Shown here: positions 46,647 through 53,199 of the stretch, in pieces
How positions within the stretch are numbered: the first letter of the stretch is position 1
How the letters are laid out: the number at the start of each line of letters is the position of its first letter
Origin: Acidobacteriota bacterium
Lineage (GTDB): Bacteria; Acidobacteriota; Blastocatellia; HR10
Assembly: GCA_030550025.1 (NCBI GenBank)
Contig: JAUQQC010000014.1
Location: 1 to 63,596, forward strand
Direction: 5' to 3'
DNA: 63,596 nucleotides
Program-made: the position numbers and the translations under genes
Notes under the pieces: generated by a model
Seen by the model: only the letters and a program-made list of their open reading frames with translations
Databases searched by the model: none
What the model was told of the DNA's origin: nothing

Positions 46647-47771
46647 ATGACTAAATGGATCATCGGATCGCTCTTGGCCATACTTTCCGCACTGAGCGTT
46701 AACTTGGTCGTGGCTTGGATCTCAGCGGAGCCTAGCCCGAAGGAACCCATCCGTAACTCCGGGGTGCCGGCTCGGGTGCTGGAGCCAATCTTCAGCGCTG
46801 ACTTCGCTCAACGCATCGAGTTAAAGAAACTGAATAAGCCTGTAACCATAGCCAGCGTGGCCGCTGATCAGCATGGTAACGTGTACCTACTCTCATGGGA
46901 TTATTCTGCTCCTAAGGGGATGGGGTGTAGTATCCAAAAGCTCGCTGCCGATGGGACTTTCCTGGACACCATACGCCTGACGCATGAGATATGGGAACCA
47001 CCAGTGGAGGCGTCCGCTCTGGCTGTCGGGAAGGATGGGACGCTCTACGTGGCCGTTGAATGGCCGATCCGGCGAGGAGGATTAATTGCAGTGGATGACA
47101 ACGGGAATCTAGTCTCCAAATTGGTGTTCCGGGATTTCATTCCCCACAAATTGGCCGTAGACGACCACGGTCAAGTGTGGGTATTAGGGGAGGAGATTGA
47201 TCCCATAAAAGCCGCTTTGGAGCGCAGCTACATTCCCGTTAATCCCGTAGAAGGCGAGCAACTTCGAGTTTATAGCCCTGACCTCAAGCATTCGGTCATC
47301 CTTGTGCGGGGTGAAAAAGAGGGCATACTTCCTTCCACGCTTAAGAGCACGGGAGATGAGATCGTCTACTACGCGAGTGGGACGAACGCGATTCGGGTGT
47401 TTCGCCAAGGACAACTCGTGCGAAAATTGACGCTCCCGGCGTTGACCCCTCTTACGCCCCCGGAGGAGGTGCTGCGCGGTGGATTTAAGACGCTGAGGTT
47501 CATAACAGGAGTTTACAAAATTGGCGATCGCTTTCTCGTGGCGGGATTTTACAATTACAAGCCAACGGCCAGGAGTGGTGGCGTGCTGACCGGGATATCG
47601 CGGAATTTCATCGCCCTCGTGAGCCAGGATGGTGAGGCCGCTTCGCCGGAATTTGAGCCGCCTGACAATGTCTCACTCGCGAATTACTCAGACGGGCATT
47701 TCATTGCATTCTCAGGTTCGAGAACCAGAGGGACGTTCCTCATCATGAAGTTAAAGCCGGCGATTCGATGA
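46647..47771 (+). CDS. Secreted six-bladed beta-propeller-like protein
   Basis: A 374-residue protein with an N-terminal membrane or signal segment (WIIGSLLAILSALSVNLVVAW). Repeated blade-like segments follow: ADQHGNVYLLSWDY (about residue 72), VGKDGTLYVAVEW (about 130), VDDHGQVWVLGEE (about 172), then more degenerate blades to the end. These are NHL/6-bladed propeller type, which act as binding scaffolds. No catalytic motif is visible. AAAAGGAGGTTTTGAGCA precedes the ATG. It is almost certainly co-transcribed with the Cys-rich protein gene. A decayed paralogue of its C-terminal part lies at 48265-48380. The gene is less GC-rich than the surroundings. Confidence 0.78.
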   Translation: MTKWIIGSLLAILSALSVNLVVAWISAEPSPKEPIRNSGVPARVLEPIFSADFAQRIELKKLNKPVTIASVAADQHGNVYLLSWDYSAPKGMGCSIQKLAADGTFLDTIRLTHEIWEPPVEASALAVGKDGTLYVAVEWPIRRGGLIAVDDNGNLVSKLVFRDFIPHKLAVDDHGQVWVLGEEIDPIKAALERSYIPVNPVEGEQLRVYSPDLKHSVILVRGEKEGILPSTLKSTGDEIVYYASGTNAIRVFRQGQLVRKLTLPALTPLTPPEEVLRGGFKTLRFITGVYKIGDRFLVAGFYNYKPTARSGGVLTGISRNFIALVSQDGEAASPEFEPPDNVSLANYSDGHFIAFSGSRTRGTFLIMKLKPAIR

Positions 47772-48389: not shown

Positions 48390-48545
48390 GAATTTCGCAC
48401 CGAGAGCGGGAACGCTCGCTTCGCCCGCCGTCAGCGATTCTCATTGGCCCGGGAGGTCAGCCGTATGATCAGGGAGGCGCTCACCCGGTCGCACCGGGCA
48501 CCACCGCGCCCATAAGGGAGATTTAGGGCCGGCTAAAAACTTTCA
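48390..48545. other. Gene-free stretch before the cimA leader
   Basis: No supported gene. It joins the decayed propeller region to the leader promoter. A small GAGCG-GGAA-CGCTC hairpin is present near 48405. Confidence 0.35.
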
Positions 48546-48547
48546 AT

Positions 48548-48575
48548 TTGCATTCGCGTGCGTTTCGGATAAACT
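48548..48575 (+). promoter_or_regulatory. Probable promoter of the cimA leader
   Basis: TTGCAT (48548-48553), a 16-base spacer and TAAACT (48570-48575). TTGCAT is also the -35 of the RND operon promoter. Transcription would begin near 48582, about 30 bases before the leader-peptide ATG and 250 before cimA. Confidence 0.35.
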
Positions 48576-48612
48576 TCCAAGCGGACGCCTTATGGGAAGA
48601 CCGATCGGGACA

Positions 48613-48729
48613 ATGAAGATGTGGCGAACGAGCCGAGCGAAGGCTCTCGGCGCTGGAGGTCCCGATCGCGCGCTCACCCTCGCCATTATTATTCGCTCCA
48701 TTATACTGCCCGGGTCGGGCAGCGGGTGA
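48613..48729 (+). CDS. Leader peptide with clustered isoleucine codons (cimA attenuator)
   Basis: A 38-codon frame beginning MKMWRTSRAKALG and reaching LTLAIIIRSIILPGSGSG before a TGA at 48727. Five of seven consecutive codons from 48685 to 48705 are Ile (ATT ATT ATT CGC TCC ATT ATA), flanked by Leu codons. It lies between a likely promoter and a perfect terminator upstream of citramalate synthase, which starts isoleucine synthesis from pyruvate. Stalling at the Ile codons when charged tRNA-Ile is scarce would control read-through. The ribosome binding site is weak (CGGGAC). An in-frame ATG two codons later is an alternative start. It is too short for standard gene calling. Confidence 0.72.
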   Translation: MKMWRTSRAKALGAGGPDRALTLAIIIRSIILPGSGSG

Positions 48730-48744
48730 TGGCTCAGCCATCAC
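48706..48744 (+). promoter_or_regulatory. Two hairpins of the attenuator leader
   Basis: CTGCCCG-GGT-CGGGCAG (48706-48722) starts at the last codon of the Ile cluster. GTGATGGCT-C-AGCCATCAC (48726-48744) follows and overlaps the leader stop. Bases 48727-48735 (TGATGGCTC) could instead pair with 48756-48764 in the terminator arm with two G-U pairs, giving a possible antiterminator. Confidence 0.5.
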
Positions 48745-48753
48745 GGAAGGTGC

Positions 48754-48799
48754 AAGGGCCATTATCCGCTGCTCACGGATAATGGCCCTTTCGATTTTT
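48754..48799 (+). terminator. Attenuator terminator before cimA
   Basis: A perfect 15-bp stem (48754-48768 with 48776-48790, arm AAGGGCCATTATCCG), a seven-base loop, then TCGA and five T residues (48795-48799). It lies 33 bases before the cimA start and 24 bases after the leader stop. Confidence 0.85.
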
Positions 48800-48831
48800 C
48801 GGAGCACTTTGGGAAAGGAGGTCGGAAGGGC

Positions 48832-50463
48832 ATGAGGAAGATCGAGATTTACGACACAACGTTACGCGATGGGACACAAGGAGAGGATGTCTGTTTCTCA
48901 GTCGAAGACAAGATGATGATCGCGCGCAAGCTCGATGAGCTAGGGATCGATTATATCGAGGGGGGGTGGCCGGGATCGAATCCGCGTGATGCCGCGTTCT
49001 TCAAGCGCGCGCGCCACTTGCGCTTGCATCGGGCGCGGCTTGTGGCCTTCGGCAGCACCTGTCATCCCCGGCATCACGCGGAGGAGGACCCGAACCTTCG
49101 CGCTCTCTTGGAAGCGGAGACGCCGACGGTCACCATCTTCGGGAAGAGCTGGGATCGGCACATCGTGAACGCGCTCAACACGACGCTCGAGCGGAACCTG
49201 GAACTGATCCGTGACTCCATCGCCTATTTGAAGGCAGCCGGGCGTGAGGTCATCTTCGACGCTGAGCATTTCTTCGACGGCTTTCGAGCGAATCCGGAGT
49301 ACGCGCTGGCCACGCTCGTGACGGCCCAGCAAGCTGGTGCCGATGTGATCGTCCTTTGCGACACGAATGGTGGCACGCTCACCCATCACCTGATCGAGAT
49401 GATCGAGGCCGTGCGTCCTCACCTTCATGTGCGGTTGGGGATCCATACGCATAACGACTCAGATCTAGCCGTAGCCAACGCCATTGCGGCCGTCGAACAT
49501 GGGATCACGCACGTGCAGGGGACGATCAACGGCTATGGCGAACGTTGCGGGAATGCGAACCTGTGCTCGATCATCCCCATTCTGGAGCTGAAGATGGGGT
49601 ATCGGACGATCGGGCCGGAGCGGCTCGTGCGACTGACGTCGGTCTCGCACTTCGTGAGCGAGCTGGCGAATCTCCCCCTGCGCTCCAATCAGCCATTCGT
49701 GGGGAGGAGCGCCTTCGCGCACAAGGCGGGCGTGCATGTGAGCGCCGTGCTCAAGGATACCTCGACTTATGAGCACATTCCTCCGGAGGCCGTGGGGAAT
49801 GCGCGTCGGGTCTTAGTCTCCGATCTCTCGGGCAAGAGCAATCTCCTCTATAAGGCGGCAGAGATGGGGATTGACCTCGGCACTGACGACGATCGGCTCC
49901 GAACGCTCCTTGGTCGCTTGAAGCTGCTCGAATATGAGGGGTATCAATTCGAGGGGGCGGAGGGATCGCTGCGATTGCTCTTGGAAGAGGCTGTGCACGG
50001 GGATTGTGCGTTCTTCCAGTTGGAGACGTTTCGCGTCGTGAGCGAGCGCACGGGCGATGGGCGGCTGCGCTCGGTCGCCACTGTGCGGGTGCGCGTTGGG
50101 GAGACGGTCGAAGAAGTGATCGCCCAGGGGAAGGGGCCGGTGCTCGCTCTGGATCGTGCGCTCCGCAAGGCGCTGCGCACGTTCTTCCCGAGCGTGAATG
50201 ACCTGCGACTCACCGATTACAAAGTCCGCGTGCTCGACGCCAGGCGGGGGACGGCAGCCAAAGTGCGCGTACTCGTCGAAACGAGCGATGGGGAGGAAGA
50301 ATGGCGCACGGTCGGCGTCTCCGAGAACATCTTGGAGGCGAGCTATCAAGCGCTCGTGGATGCGATCCGGTATAAGTTGCTCAAGGAATACGGGCGATCC
50401 CGCCAGCCTTCGCGCAACGACGTCGCTCCCGACTACGAGCGACAATACGGATGGGGGGTTTAG
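48832..50463 (+). CDS. cimA: (R)-citramalate synthase
   Basis: A 543-residue enzyme condensing pyruvate and acetyl-CoA to citramalate, the threonine-independent entry to isoleucine. The TIM-barrel motifs are IYDTTLRDGTQGE, EGGWPGSNP, FDAEHFFDG, CDTNGGTLTHH and the metal-binding LGIHTHNDSDLAVAN. The second half has GVHVSAVLKD and a C-terminal LeuA-type allosteric domain (about residues 390-520) that binds the end product in homologues. The length and EGGWPGSNP fit the long citramalate-synthase subgroup rather than 2-isopropylmalate synthase. AAAGGAGGTCGGAAGGGC precedes the ATG. Expression is probably set by the Ile-codon attenuator upstream. Confidence 0.92.
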   Translation: MRKIEIYDTTLRDGTQGEDVCFSVEDKMMIARKLDELGIDYIEGGWPGSNPRDAAFFKRARHLRLHRARLVAFGSTCHPRHHAEEDPNLRALLEAETPTVTIFGKSWDRHIVNALNTTLERNLELIRDSIAYLKAAGREVIFDAEHFFDGFRANPEYALATLVTAQQAGADVIVLCDTNGGTLTHHLIEMIEAVRPHLHVRLGIHTHNDSDLAVANAIAAVEHGITHVQGTINGYGERCGNANLCSIIPILELKMGYRTIGPERLVRLTSVSHFVSELANLPLRSNQPFVGRSAFAHKAGVHVSAVLKDTSTYEHIPPEAVGNARRVLVSDLSGKSNLLYKAAEMGIDLGTDDDRLRTLLGRLKLLEYEGYQFEGAEGSLRLLLEEAVHGDCAFFQLETFRVVSERTGDGRLRSVATVRVRVGETVEEVIAQGKGPVLALDRALRKALRTFFPSVNDLRLTDYKVRVLDARRGTAAKVRVLVETSDGEEEWRTVGVSENILEASYQALVDAIRYKLLKEYGRSRQPSRNDVAPDYERQYGWGV

Positions 50464-50531
50464 CGGATCGCGGACCAAAGGGCGTGGGAGGTGTCTCGCA
50501 CTTTGAGATGGTGACCATGAGGGGAGAAGTT

Positions 50532-51500
50532 ATGGTGCCGAAGGATTTGCTCATGAAGATGTTCTACTATCTCCGCCTGACGCGGGAGGCAGAATCTCGC
50601 ATCGAGCGGGTCTTGTACCGGCAGGGGAAAATCGTGGGTGGCGTCTACGTCGGTCGCGGGCAGGAGGCCATTGGTGTTGGCAGCGCCATTCAGCTCCGAC
50701 CAGATGACGTCGTCGCTCCCAGTCACCGGGATATGAGCGTCTTTCTCATCCGGGGGATTCCGCTCAAGCAAATCATGGCTCAGTACATGGGGCGGAAGAC
50801 GGGCGTGACCGGCGGCAAGGACGGGAACATGCACATGGGGGATATTCGACGGCACGTCATCGCCTTCCCCAGTCACATGGCGGATACGGTCCCGGTGGCT
50901 GCCGGTTGCGCTTTGGCGTTCAAGCGGCGAGGGGAGGATCGCGTGGCCGTGTGTTATTTCGGAGATGGAGCGACGAGCCGCGCCGATTGGCATGAGGGGT
51001 TGAACTTCGCGGCCGTCCAACGACTGCCAATCGTCTACATCTGCAACAACAATCAATATGCCTACTCGACGCCGCTTTGGCGACAGATGGCCGTGCCGAA
51101 CGTCGCCGATCGGGCCATCAACTACGGGATCCCGGGGGAGATCGTGGATGGCAACGATGTTTTGGCTGTCTATGAGGCGACGGCGCGCGCGGTGGAGCGC
51201 GCCCGGCGAGGCGAGGGGCCGACGCTCCTCGAATGCAAGACCTTTCGCATGACGGGACATTCGGCGCACGACGATGCCTTCTACGTCCCCAAGGAACTTT
51301 TCGAGGAATGGGCGAAGAAGGATCCGATCGCACGCTTGAGCGAGTATCTCACGGCACGCGGGATCGCGACGGAAGCGGAGCTTCGAGACGTGGAGGCGCG
51401 GGTCCTGCGCGAGGTGGATGAGGCGATCGCGTGGGCTGAGCAAAGCCCCTATCCCGATCCAGAGGAGTGCCTGGAGGGAGTGTACGCCCCTCCAGCATGA
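50532..51500 (+). CDS. Thiamine-diphosphate-dependent 2-oxoacid dehydrogenase E1 alpha subunit
   Basis: A 322-residue alpha subunit of a pyruvate or branched-chain 2-oxoacid dehydrogenase. The TPP-binding motif runs from CYFGDGATSRADWHEG to VYICNNNQYAYST. The active-site region has PSHRDMSVFL and GGKDGNMHMGD, and the phosphorylation-loop-like RMTGHSAHDDAFYV follows. The ATG at 50532 has GGGGAGAAG just upstream. A frame from 50451 overlaps cimA. No E1 beta, E2 or E3 gene is near, which is odd because alpha and beta are normally adjacent. It lies 68 bp after cimA and may be expressed from the same promoter. Confidence 0.9.
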   Translation: MVPKDLLMKMFYYLRLTREAESRIERVLYRQGKIVGGVYVGRGQEAIGVGSAIQLRPDDVVAPSHRDMSVFLIRGIPLKQIMAQYMGRKTGVTGGKDGNMHMGDIRRHVIAFPSHMADTVPVAAGCALAFKRRGEDRVAVCYFGDGATSRADWHEGLNFAAVQRLPIVYICNNNQYAYSTPLWRQMAVPNVADRAINYGIPGEIVDGNDVLAVYEATARAVERARRGEGPTLLECKTFRMTGHSAHDDAFYVPKELFEEWAKKDPIARLSEYLTARGIATEAELRDVEARVLREVDEAIAWAEQSPYPDPEECLEGVYAPPA

Positions 51501-51561
51501 CGATCTGGCGAATTCCACCTTCGGACGCCGTGCCAGGCCCGCGCCTGCTGTTGGTGTCTGG

Positions 51562-53199
51562 TCAGAAATACTTCTCCCCAAAACTCGGAGGCTGCTCGGC
51601 GATGCGGACGTTGACGCAGGCGGGCCGGCCGCACGCTCGCATGCGTCGGAGCGCGGGAGCGATCTCCTCAGGCCGTTCGATGAATTCCCCATATCCGCCG
51701 AGCGCTTCGACCACGCGGTCGTAGCGCGTGGGCTGCAGTCGCGTCGCCACGGCCCGCTCCTCCCCATAGAGCGCGATTTGCGGACGGCGAATTTGCCCCC
51801 AGGCCGCATCGTTGCCGACGACGGACATGATCGGCAGGTGAAAGCGCACGGCCGTATCGAACTCGAAGCCGTTGAAGCCGAAGGACCCATCGCCGAAGAG
51901 AACCAGGACGCGCTTATCCGGATGCGCCAGTTGCGCGGCGATGGCGAAAGGCACGCCGATCCCCAAACAGCCGAAGGGGCCCGGGTCCATCCACTGTCCC
52001 GGCCAGTGAACGGGGAGCACTTTCGCGGCCAGCGAGACGATATCCCCCCCATCTCCGATGACGATCGTCTCAGGGTCTACGAACTCAGCCAGCTCGCGAC
52101 ACAGACGGAGCGGATCGATCGGAACAGCATCGGAATGAAGGCGCGGCTCCCAAGCCCGCTGCTGCTCCAGTTCGGCCTCGCGCAGCCGATCCCGCCAGGC
52201 CGTGAAGCGCAGCGCGGGATATTCGGCGCGCACGGCCTCATCCATCAGCTCGAAGATCACGCGGAGATCGCCGACCAACCCTACGTCGGCCGAGCGATTC
52301 TGTCCGATGACTATGGGATCGAGATCCATCTGGATGAGCTTCGCATCCGCCGGCAGCTCGCGTCCGAAGTTGAGGCGAAAGTCCAAGGGGGTTCCGGCGA
52401 GGATGAGCACATCGGCCTGCCGCAGTGCCCGGCGTCGCGCGTGGACAAAGAGCTGAGGCGAATCAGGAGGCAGAGCCCCGCGTCCCATGCCGTTGGTAAA
52501 GGTCGGCAGATGGAGCCGCTCCACGAACCGCGCGAGCGCTTCGTGAGCTCGGGACCAACGCACGCCGCTGCCGGCGACGAGAACGGGTCGTTCGGCCTGT
52601 GCCAGTAGCGCGAGCGCCTGTCGAATGGCCTCGGGTCGAGGGCGAAGCTCCTGAGGCTCTCGCCCCAAGTGGGGAAACCGCACCGATTTCTCCGAGACCT
52701 GATTCATCAAAATGTCCACCGGGATTTCCACAAAGACCGGTCCAGGAATCCCCGCCATCGCGTGGCGCAGAGCGACGTCGATCATCTCCGGGATGCGATC
52801 GGTATGCAGCACCTGCCCCGCCCACTTCGTGATCGGGCGCATCACGCTGACATGATCCATCTCTTGCAACGAGCCCTGGCCGAGCTGAAAGGAAGGGGCT
52901 TGCCCCCCAATGACGAGGATCGGACTACCTGCCCGGAAGGCATTCGCCACACCAGTGACGCTATCGGTCACCCCAGGTCCGGTCGTCACGACGGCGACGC
53001 CCGGTTTCCCCGTGCAGCGCGCCCAGGCATCGGCCGCGTGCACGGCAGCTTGCTCATGTCGCAGATCAACGAGGCGAATCCCTTCCTCCACGCACCCGTC
53101 GTAGATCGGCAGGATGTGTCCCCCGCAGAGCGTGAAGACGACCTCGACGCCCGCCGCTTTCAACGTCTTGGCGACTAGTTGCCCCCCGTGAAGATCCAT
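51562..53199 (-). CDS. Thiamine-diphosphate enzyme of the acetolactate synthase/2-hydroxyacyl lyase type
   Basis: A 545-residue protein with the three-domain layout of the family. The N-terminal PYR domain has the catalytic Glu in LRHEQAAVHAADAWAR, the middle domain has VLVAGSGVRW, and the C-terminal PP domain has the TPP motif FGDGSFGFNGFEFDTAVR through GNDAAWGQI. True acetolactate synthase would need a small subunit (ilvN), which is absent. The PP region also resembles 2-hydroxyacyl-CoA lyase and oxalyl-CoA decarboxylase, so the reaction is left open. A GGGGGTGAGGGG ribosome binding site precedes the ATG. It converges with the E1 alpha gene and is divergent to the HTH gene. Confidence 0.85.
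   Translation of the reverse strand: MDLHGGQLVAKTLKAAGVEVVFTLCGGHILPIYDGCVEEGIRLVDLRHEQAAVHAADAWARCTGKPGVAVVTTGPGVTDSVTGVANAFRAGSPILVIGGQAPSFQLGQGSLQEMDHVSVMRPITKWAGQVLHTDRIPEMIDVALRHAMAGIPGPVFVEIPVDILMNQVSEKSVRFPHLGREPQELRPRPEAIRQALALLAQAERPVLVAGSGVRWSRAHEALARFVERLHLPTFTNGMGRGALPPDSPQLFVHARRRALRQADVLILAGTPLDFRLNFGRELPADAKLIQMDLDPIVIGQNRSADVGLVGDLRVIFELMDEAVRAEYPALRFTAWRDRLREAELEQQRAWEPRLHSDAVPIDPLRLCRELAEFVDPETIVIGDGGDIVSLAAKVLPVHWPGQWMDPGPFGCLGIGVPFAIAAQLAHPDKRVLVLFGDGSFGFNGFEFDTAVRFHLPIMSVVGNDAAWGQIRRPQIALYGEERAVATRLQPTRYDRVVEALGGYGEFIERPEEIAPALRRMRACGRPACVNVRIAEQPPSFGEKYF

What the first reader, a model, noticed from the sequence alone, without database searches (positions are those of the whole stretch)
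48548..48831. Isoleucine-codon attenuator in front of citramalate synthase
A 38-codon leader with five Ile codons in seven (48685-48705) ends beside two small hairpins and a perfect 15-bp terminator with a T-run, 33 bases before cimA. The amino acid counted by the leader is the end product of the pathway cimA starts, a strong functional match. Ribosome-mediated attenuation is classic for ilv and leu operons of Proteobacteria. For cimA in this phylum I know of no described case.
Basis: partly seen in the sequence, partly recalled or inferred. Interest (0 to 1): 0.75.

Follow-up and report, generated by a model that had tools for sequence, protein, structure and literature searches.

The report
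Isoleucine-sensing attenuator before cimA
A short isoleucine-rich peptide gene just before the first gene of isoleucine synthesis very likely lets the cell switch that gene on only when isoleucine is scarce, and the same RNA switch with other amino acids swapped in is found before many amino-acid genes across the bacterial phylum Acidobacteriota.

Summary
The window has a 45-codon leader ORF with five Ile codons in seven (48685-48705), a perfect 15-bp terminator, and cimA 33 nt after the T-run. Ile codons, antiterminator and terminator are kept in all six genomes examined of the family and, more diverged, in nine cimA leaders of another Acidobacteriota family, with covariation. A covariance model of these leaders then found the same scaffold elsewhere in the phylum before ilvB, ilvN, ilvD, ilvA, lysC/thrA, hom, pheA and gltB. 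The control codons change to fit: Ile/Val/Leu for branched-chain operons, Thr for hom/lysC, Phe for one pheA. Apparent misfits (Val leaders before pheA) proved to be pheA-ilvB/ilvD clusters. No Rfam family matches, and I found no paper describing leader-peptide attenuation in Acidobacteriota, though a 2010 comparative study could not be read. By mechanism it is classical ribosome-mediated attenuation. New are the target cimA, the phylum, and a shared scaffold with exchangeable control codons. No transcript data were available.

The parts
48548..48575 (+). Likely promoter: TTGCAT (48548-48553), 16 nt, TAAACT (48570-48575); start of transcription near 48582 inferred
   Evidence: Block around 48540-48575 is conserved in all six family members (TTTCAATTTGC invariant). 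The consensus scan did not list it, so it is weak by consensus.
48592..48729 (+). Leader peptide ORF, 45 codons, MGRPIGTMKMWRTSRAKALGAGGPDRALTLAIIIRSIILPGSGSG, stop TGA 48727-48729 (alternative start 48613, 38 codons)
   Evidence: ATG and frame aligned in five species of the genus; Shine-Dalgarno weak
48685..48705 (+). Control codons: Ile Ile Ile Arg Ser Ile Ile (ATT ATT ATT CGC TCC ATT ATA)
   Evidence: Direct reading; Ile runs kept in frame in five relatives of the family and nine loci of family f34
48706..48722 (+). Hairpin A (1:2): CTGCCC - GGGTC - GGGCAG; its 3' arm is the start of region 2
   Evidence: Fold
48717..48733 (+). Region 2, antiterminator 5' arm GGGCAGCGGGTGATGGC; contains the leader stop codon
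   Evidence: 17-bp duplex with region 3, 0 of 1000 shuffles as strong; covariation
48726..48744 (+). Hairpin B: GTGATGGC - TCA - GCCATCAC; competes with the antiterminator
   Evidence: Fold; present in five of six family members, not in the wider set
48758..48774 (+). Region 3, antiterminator 3' arm GCCATTATCCGCTGCTC, overlapping terminator 5' arm and loop
48754..48799 (+). Intrinsic terminator: 15-bp stem 48754-48768 / 48776-48790 and T-rich tail to 48799
   Evidence: covariation in 15 and 46 sequences
48816..48821 (+). Ribosome binding site AGGAGG of cimA, outside the hairpins
   Evidence: Direct reading
48832..50463 (+). cimA, citramalate synthase, 543 aa
   Evidence: TIGR00977, E 3e-226

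Best explanation
This is a ribosome-mediated transcription attenuator that senses charged isoleucyl-tRNA. RNA polymerase starts near 48582 and a ribosome follows it on the leader ORF. With little charged Ile-tRNA the ribosome stalls at the Ile run; region 2 (48717-48733) stays free, pairs with region 3 as it emerges, the terminator cannot form and cimA is transcribed. With enough Ile-tRNA the ribosome reaches the stop codon, which lies inside region 2, and covers it; region 3 pairs with region 4, the terminator forms, and transcription ends before cimA. Shown here: the parts, their conservation, control codons that fit the pathway across many operons, and covariation of terminator and antiterminator. 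Inferred: the promoter, ribosome stalling, termination in vivo and the direction of the response. The element belongs to a scaffold used before many amino-acid operons in Acidobacteriota.
For: Five of seven Ile codons and one strong terminator, both unique in the window. Antiterminator -38.5 kcal/mol, shuffles -19.2 +/- 2.9, 0 of 1000; same in all six family members. Ile codons kept in frame in six genomes of the family and nine cimA leaders of family f34. Terminator covariation: 5 of 11 pairs with changes on both sides, 100% paired. Antiterminator covariation on 46 leaders: 47 double-changed cells against 20.9 in shuffles, 0 of 500; three pairs outside the terminator stem 31 against 13.6, 0 of 500. 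A model from cimA leaders only (R1) found the scaffold before ilvB, ilvN, ilvD, ilvA, lysC/thrA, hom, pheA, and leaders of Thr operons are rich in Thr (25% against 6%), those of branched-chain operons in Ile/Leu/Val (45% against 17%), also in loci not used for model R2. Nascent RNA to 48776: antiterminator probability 0.93-1.00 with a ribosome on the Ile codons, 0.00 with one at the stop codon.
Against: No transcript or reporter data. In the finished leader at equilibrium the terminator wins whatever the ribosome does, so the choice has to be kinetic. For nascent RNA with no ribosome the model also favours the antiterminator, so shut-off without translation would depend on hairpins A and B forming first. 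Leader Shine-Dalgarno and promoter are weak by consensus. Hairpin A is weakened in G002. The U-tract is interrupted (TCGATTTTTC).
Confidence: 0.93

Rival explanations
1. A T-box or another riboswitch senses Ile-tRNA or a metabolite directly; the Ile codons are incidental.
For: T-boxes commonly control branched-chain genes in Firmicutes (established knowledge). The leader is long (about 170 nt before the terminator) and folds well.
Against: No Rfam match in the window or in 38 related loci. Conservation follows codons and the 2:3:4 pairing; the rest of the leader diverges. Control codons change with the pathway.
Confidence: 0.02
2. The hairpin is a plain terminator of an upstream transcript or a constitutive brake, and the small ORF is not translated.
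For: Strong terminator; weak Shine-Dalgarno for the leader. The nearest upstream gene (46647-47771) reads the same way.
Against: Does not explain the in-frame Ile runs, the conserved antiterminator with its own covariation, or codon-pathway agreement in 53 other leaders.
Confidence: 0.03
3. A trans-acting protein or RNA recognises the conserved scaffold and decides between terminator and antiterminator, with the leader peptide as an auxiliary.
For: Core identity between leaders is about 0.67 across families and operons, perhaps more than the pairing rule alone needs.
Against: Codons that match each pathway point to the ribosome as sensor; the stop codon sits where a finishing ribosome must cover region 2.
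Confidence: 0.02

Closest known systems
Classical leader-peptide attenuators of Proteobacteria (trp, his, thr, pheA, ilvGMEDA, ilvB, leu operons)
   Same: Leader ORF with control codons of the end product, alternative antiterminator and terminator, direction of control (established knowledge; general form summarised in PMC10272879). Thr+Ile codons before aspartokinase resemble the thr leader of E. coli.
   Different: Other phylum; cimA as target; one common scaffold sequence shared by Ile, Val, Thr, Phe and Leu elements; leader stop codon inside the antiterminator 5' arm in nearly all inspected members.
ilvB uORF attenuators of Actinobacteria (ilvB-II motif of Corynebacterium; ilvB leaders of Mycobacterium and Streptomyces)
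   Same: Leader rich in Ile/Leu/Val codons, terminator and antiterminator before a branched-chain gene; reporter evidence in Corynebacterium (PMC10272879; PMC1262725).
   Different: Different sequence and gene; confined there to ilvB and once per genome; no shared scaffold with Thr or Phe operons described.
Ile-rich leaders before cimA in Desulfobacterota (seen here)
   Same: Ile-rich leader and strong terminator directly before cimA in seven loci.
   Different: Another terminator sequence (ATCCGTTATCAGG type). R2 hits inspected in that phylum lack the layout. Antiterminator clear in two of the four tested.

Membership tests
Ribosome-mediated (classical) transcription attenuator | Short leader ORF before the structural gene | tested here: met
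   45 codons, frame and ATG conserved in five species
Ribosome-mediated (classical) transcription attenuator | Control codons for the end product of the regulated pathway | tested here: met
   5 Ile in 7 codons, conserved in relatives; codon-pathway agreement in other operons
Ribosome-mediated (classical) transcription attenuator | Intrinsic terminator between leader and gene | tested here: met
   15-bp stem with T-run; covariation
Ribosome-mediated (classical) transcription attenuator | Mutually exclusive antiterminator placed so that ribosome position decides | tested here: met
   17-bp 2:3 helix with stop codon inside; covariation; ribosome-masking folds
Ribosome-mediated (classical) transcription attenuator | Promoter upstream of the leader | tested here: inconclusive
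   Conserved block with weak consensus
Ribosome-mediated (classical) transcription attenuator | Termination that depends on leader translation and on the amino acid | not testable with these tools
   Needs RNA or reporter experiments
T-box riboswitch or any Rfam amino-acid leader family | Match to the covariance model at gathering score | tested here: not met
   No match in the window or 38 related loci; permissive search of 48500-48860 gave only chance hits

The most novel reading that the evidence does not exclude
Acidobacteriota use one common attenuator scaffold (region 2 GCGGATGATGGC with the leader stop codon in it, region 3 GGCCATCATCCGC, region 4 its complement) before many amino-acid operons, and only the control codons are exchanged: Ile for cimA, Ile/Val for ilvB, ilvN and ilvD, Thr for lysC and hom, Phe for pheA, Leu for some small genes. 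Leader-peptide attenuation would then be a widespread mode of amino-acid control in this phylum, by a cassette that spread between operons or whose sequence is held by an extra constraint.
Probability: 0.85. Interest if true: 0.72.

Novelty: new member of a known kind. Interest (0 to 1): 0.62.

Why it matters
[quoted passage not shown] The scaffold found here gives dozens of such elements a concrete, testable function, and a covariance model with which to annotate them. It places cimA, the entry to the citramalate route, under control by the pathway's end product, and offers a case of exchangeable control codons on a shared RNA scaffold, useful for asking how attenuators arise and spread.

Tried and rejected
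Rfam searches for a known riboswitch or leader: nothing. A fixed DNA pattern across the phylum failed because my gap range was wrong and says nothing. R2 hits in Desulfobacterota, used as a control, were inspected (L349-L352, L354-L356): none has a convincing leader plus amino-acid gene. One of 247 of those genomes passes E 1e-8, against 44 of 396 Acidobacteriota by my count (which include genomes that supplied training sequences). Rejected as chance or terminator-only: L265/L372, L303, L306, L309, L377, L378, L382, L385, L387, L388, L390, L392, L393. L090 (planctomycete) looked doubtful and was not used. Val-rich leaders before pheA looked like a contradiction until ilvB or ilvD was read downstream of pheA. 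Whether f1 and f34 cimA leaders are related by descent or gene transfer was not tested with a tree. Core identity between leaders is about 0.67 whether operon or family is the same or not, apart from pairs with both the same, so how the scaffold spread is unresolved.

Full report
WHAT IS THERE. The leader ORF ends ...CTC GCC ATT ATT ATT CGC TCC ATT ATA CTG CCC GGG TCG GGC AGC GGG TGA (48679-48729), followed by a perfect 15-bp hairpin with a T-run (48754-48799) and by cimA at 48832. The five Ile codons in seven are the only such run in six frames of the window, and the terminator is its only strong one. The leader uses ATT and ATA only, cimA mostly ATC. The start codon is better placed at 48592 (45 codons), because that ATG is aligned in all five species of the genus.

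Bases 48717-48733 (GGGCAGCGGGUGAUGGC) pair in 17 consecutive pairs, G-U allowed, with 48758-48774 (GCCAUUAUCCGCUGCUC), that is, with the 5' arm and loop of the terminator. The extended duplex has -38.5 kcal/mol against -25.5 for the terminator hairpin; 1000 shuffles of the upstream part give -19.2 +/- 2.9 and none is as strong, and the same holds in each of the six family members. The leader stop codon (48727-48729) lies inside the first arm, so a ribosome that finishes the leader covers it, while a ribosome held at the Ile codons leaves most or all of it free. For RNA made up to 48776 the antiterminator has probability 0.93-1.00 with a ribosome on the Ile codons and 0.00 with one on the stop codon. 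For the finished leader at equilibrium the terminator wins in all states, so the choice must be made during transcription, as in the classical systems; this is inference.

CONSERVATION AT cimA. Four other species of the genus and one of another genus (cimA 76-94% identical) have the same element. The Ile codons stay in frame: VIIIQPASGSG, AIIIRLIILPASGSG (twice), AITIRLIILPASGSG, TIIIGGLIILPGSGSG. The middle of the leader diverges. In a scan of cimA upstream regions a second Acidobacteriota family (f34) showed the same layout in eight loci, and a ninth was found by eye. These leaders are shorter, e.g. MFAQIGIIIIAISSPPPGG, MAQRTITHIGIAIIIITGVSPGG, MNHPDRTAVTGIAIISITGGTPGG, with stop TAG or TAA, again inside the antiterminator arm. 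The f34 antiterminators are shorter than in f1 and individually less significant. In the joint alignment of 15 leaders all terminator cells pair and 5 of 11 pairs have changes on both sides. The phylum assignment rests on L021, a named Acidobacteria MAG, lying at the same place as G136, which the tool calls same phylum as the window's genome.

BEYOND cimA. A covariance model built only from these cimA leaders (R1) was run on 396 genomes of the phylum. Besides cimA it found full-length matches before other genes, which I identified with Pfam: acetolactate synthase large (ilvB) and small subunit (ilvN), dihydroxyacid dehydratase (ilvD), a PALP enzyme taken as threonine dehydratase (ilvA), aspartokinase, homoserine dehydrogenase, prephenate dehydratase, glutamate synthase. 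A second model (R2, 46 leaders) gave further loci not used to build it. In 39 leaders of branched-chain operons Ile+Leu+Val make up 45% of the last 22 codons, in 14 leaders of Thr operons 17%; Thr makes up 25% against 6%; label permutation p = 2e-5, the floor of the test. The loci not used for R2 show the same contrast, 48% against 20% and 24% against 5%. Examples: ilvB VIIIIAIISIIVRT, ilvD RPVVVVVSRVGVVITPTASG, aspartokinase TMETMTTTTTTIGVDGRCG, homoserine dehydrogenase MKTTATPGTPMTGRTGSG, chorismate mutase-prephenate dehydratase STFAFGFFKARGRLPGE. Four pheA genes with Val-rich leaders looked like exceptions; downstream of them lies ilvB or ilvD (read by eye from translations). The permutation treats loci as independent although some are close relatives (ilvN of f34), so p is optimistic; the contrast is nevertheless large in unrelated families.

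ANTITERMINATOR COVARIATION. On 46 leaders the 2:3 helix is paired in 81.5% of cells, with 47 double-changed cells against 20.9 in shuffles (0 of 500). Three pairs that lie outside the terminator stem have 31 against 13.6 (0 of 500). Slid controls are far lower. On the 15 cimA leaders alone the antiterminator counts are not decisive, apart from one A-U to G-C switch between the families outside the terminator stem. The wide alignment was drawn partly from model hits, but both models contained only the terminator as structure, so the antiterminator was not imposed. Relatedness can inflate shuffle tests; the slid control keeps relatedness.

EXTENT. With R2 60 of 396 Acidobacteriota genomes have a match at E 1e-4, 44 at 1e-8 by my count, in about fifteen families; some of these genomes supplied training sequences. 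In 247 Desulfobacterota genomes one passes 1e-8, and the hits I inspected are not attenuators. In the own genome only cimA has a clear copy. In G007, of the same order, cimA (C19:614-2164) follows what reads as the end of glutamate synthase, and an Ile leader on the same scaffold (C19:7165-7273...ATISVIVGITIGLITIRGSG) stands at the head of that cluster; that they form one operon is inference. Desulfobacterota have Ile-rich leaders and terminators before some cimA genes too (seven seen), on another scaffold.

NOVELTY. No Rfam family matches. Searches of the open-access library found no paper joining cimA, or Acidobacteria, with leader-peptide attenuation of amino-acid genes; [quoted passage not shown] One relevant comparative paper (Lopatovskaya et al. 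2010) is not held, so an earlier prediction there cannot be excluded. By mechanism this is classical attenuation, hence new member of a known kind, although the shared scaffold with exchangeable codons is unusual. Close relatives by function with experimental support are the ilvB uORFs of Corynebacterium.

LIMITS. No expression data, no mapped start or end, weak Shine-Dalgarno for the leader, promoter by conservation only. Gene calls in relatives are my ORF choices confirmed by Pfam domains; ilvA and lysC/thrA are assigned from domain plus context.

Noticed in passing
L268, L300, L310, L374 (family f30): Leu-rich leaders on the same scaffold stand before an uncharacterised small protein (73-99 aa, e.g. 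starting MEASSSHARVWKDGRLQ) without Pfam match, which seems to face the end of ilvC on the other strand.
   Followed up: partly
L305, L337, L363: LysR-type regulator genes preceded by Val/Ile/Leu-rich leaders on the same scaffold: a transcription factor apparently under attenuation.
   Followed up: partly
L260, L312, L321: Glutamate synthase (gltB) genes, one behind a cupin-like gene, preceded by Ile/Thr leaders on the scaffold.
   Followed up: partly
L314, L322 (G006, G008): Leu-rich leaders (LTPLLGLLLGIILLVLARGSG; LPVTPLLLGLIISLRLWRGSG) on the scaffold before small genes resembling the cupin-like gene ahead of gltB in G007; what follows was not read.
   Followed up: no
L035, L036, L078, L094, L215, L225, L226: Desulfobacterota cimA genes with Ile/Leu-rich leaders and strong terminators on a different scaffold (ATCCGTTATCAGG type).
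   Followed up: partly
window 48602-48669: A long stem (GATCGGGAC with GTCCCGATC) lies inside the leader ORF, upstream of the Ile codons; kept in some relatives, weaker in others. Role unknown.
   Followed up: no
window 50529-53199: Next to cimA lie a 2-oxoacid dehydrogenase E1-alpha-like gene (50529-51500, +) and an acetolactate-synthase-like TPP enzyme (51562-53199, -; 583.7 bits, just below the NCBIfam cut-off 587), both possibly branched-chain related.
   Followed up: no
L008 (G005) 1251-1500: In the other genus about 250 nt lie between the T-run and cimA instead of about 35, so cimA there may have an added promoter or leader.
   Followed up: no
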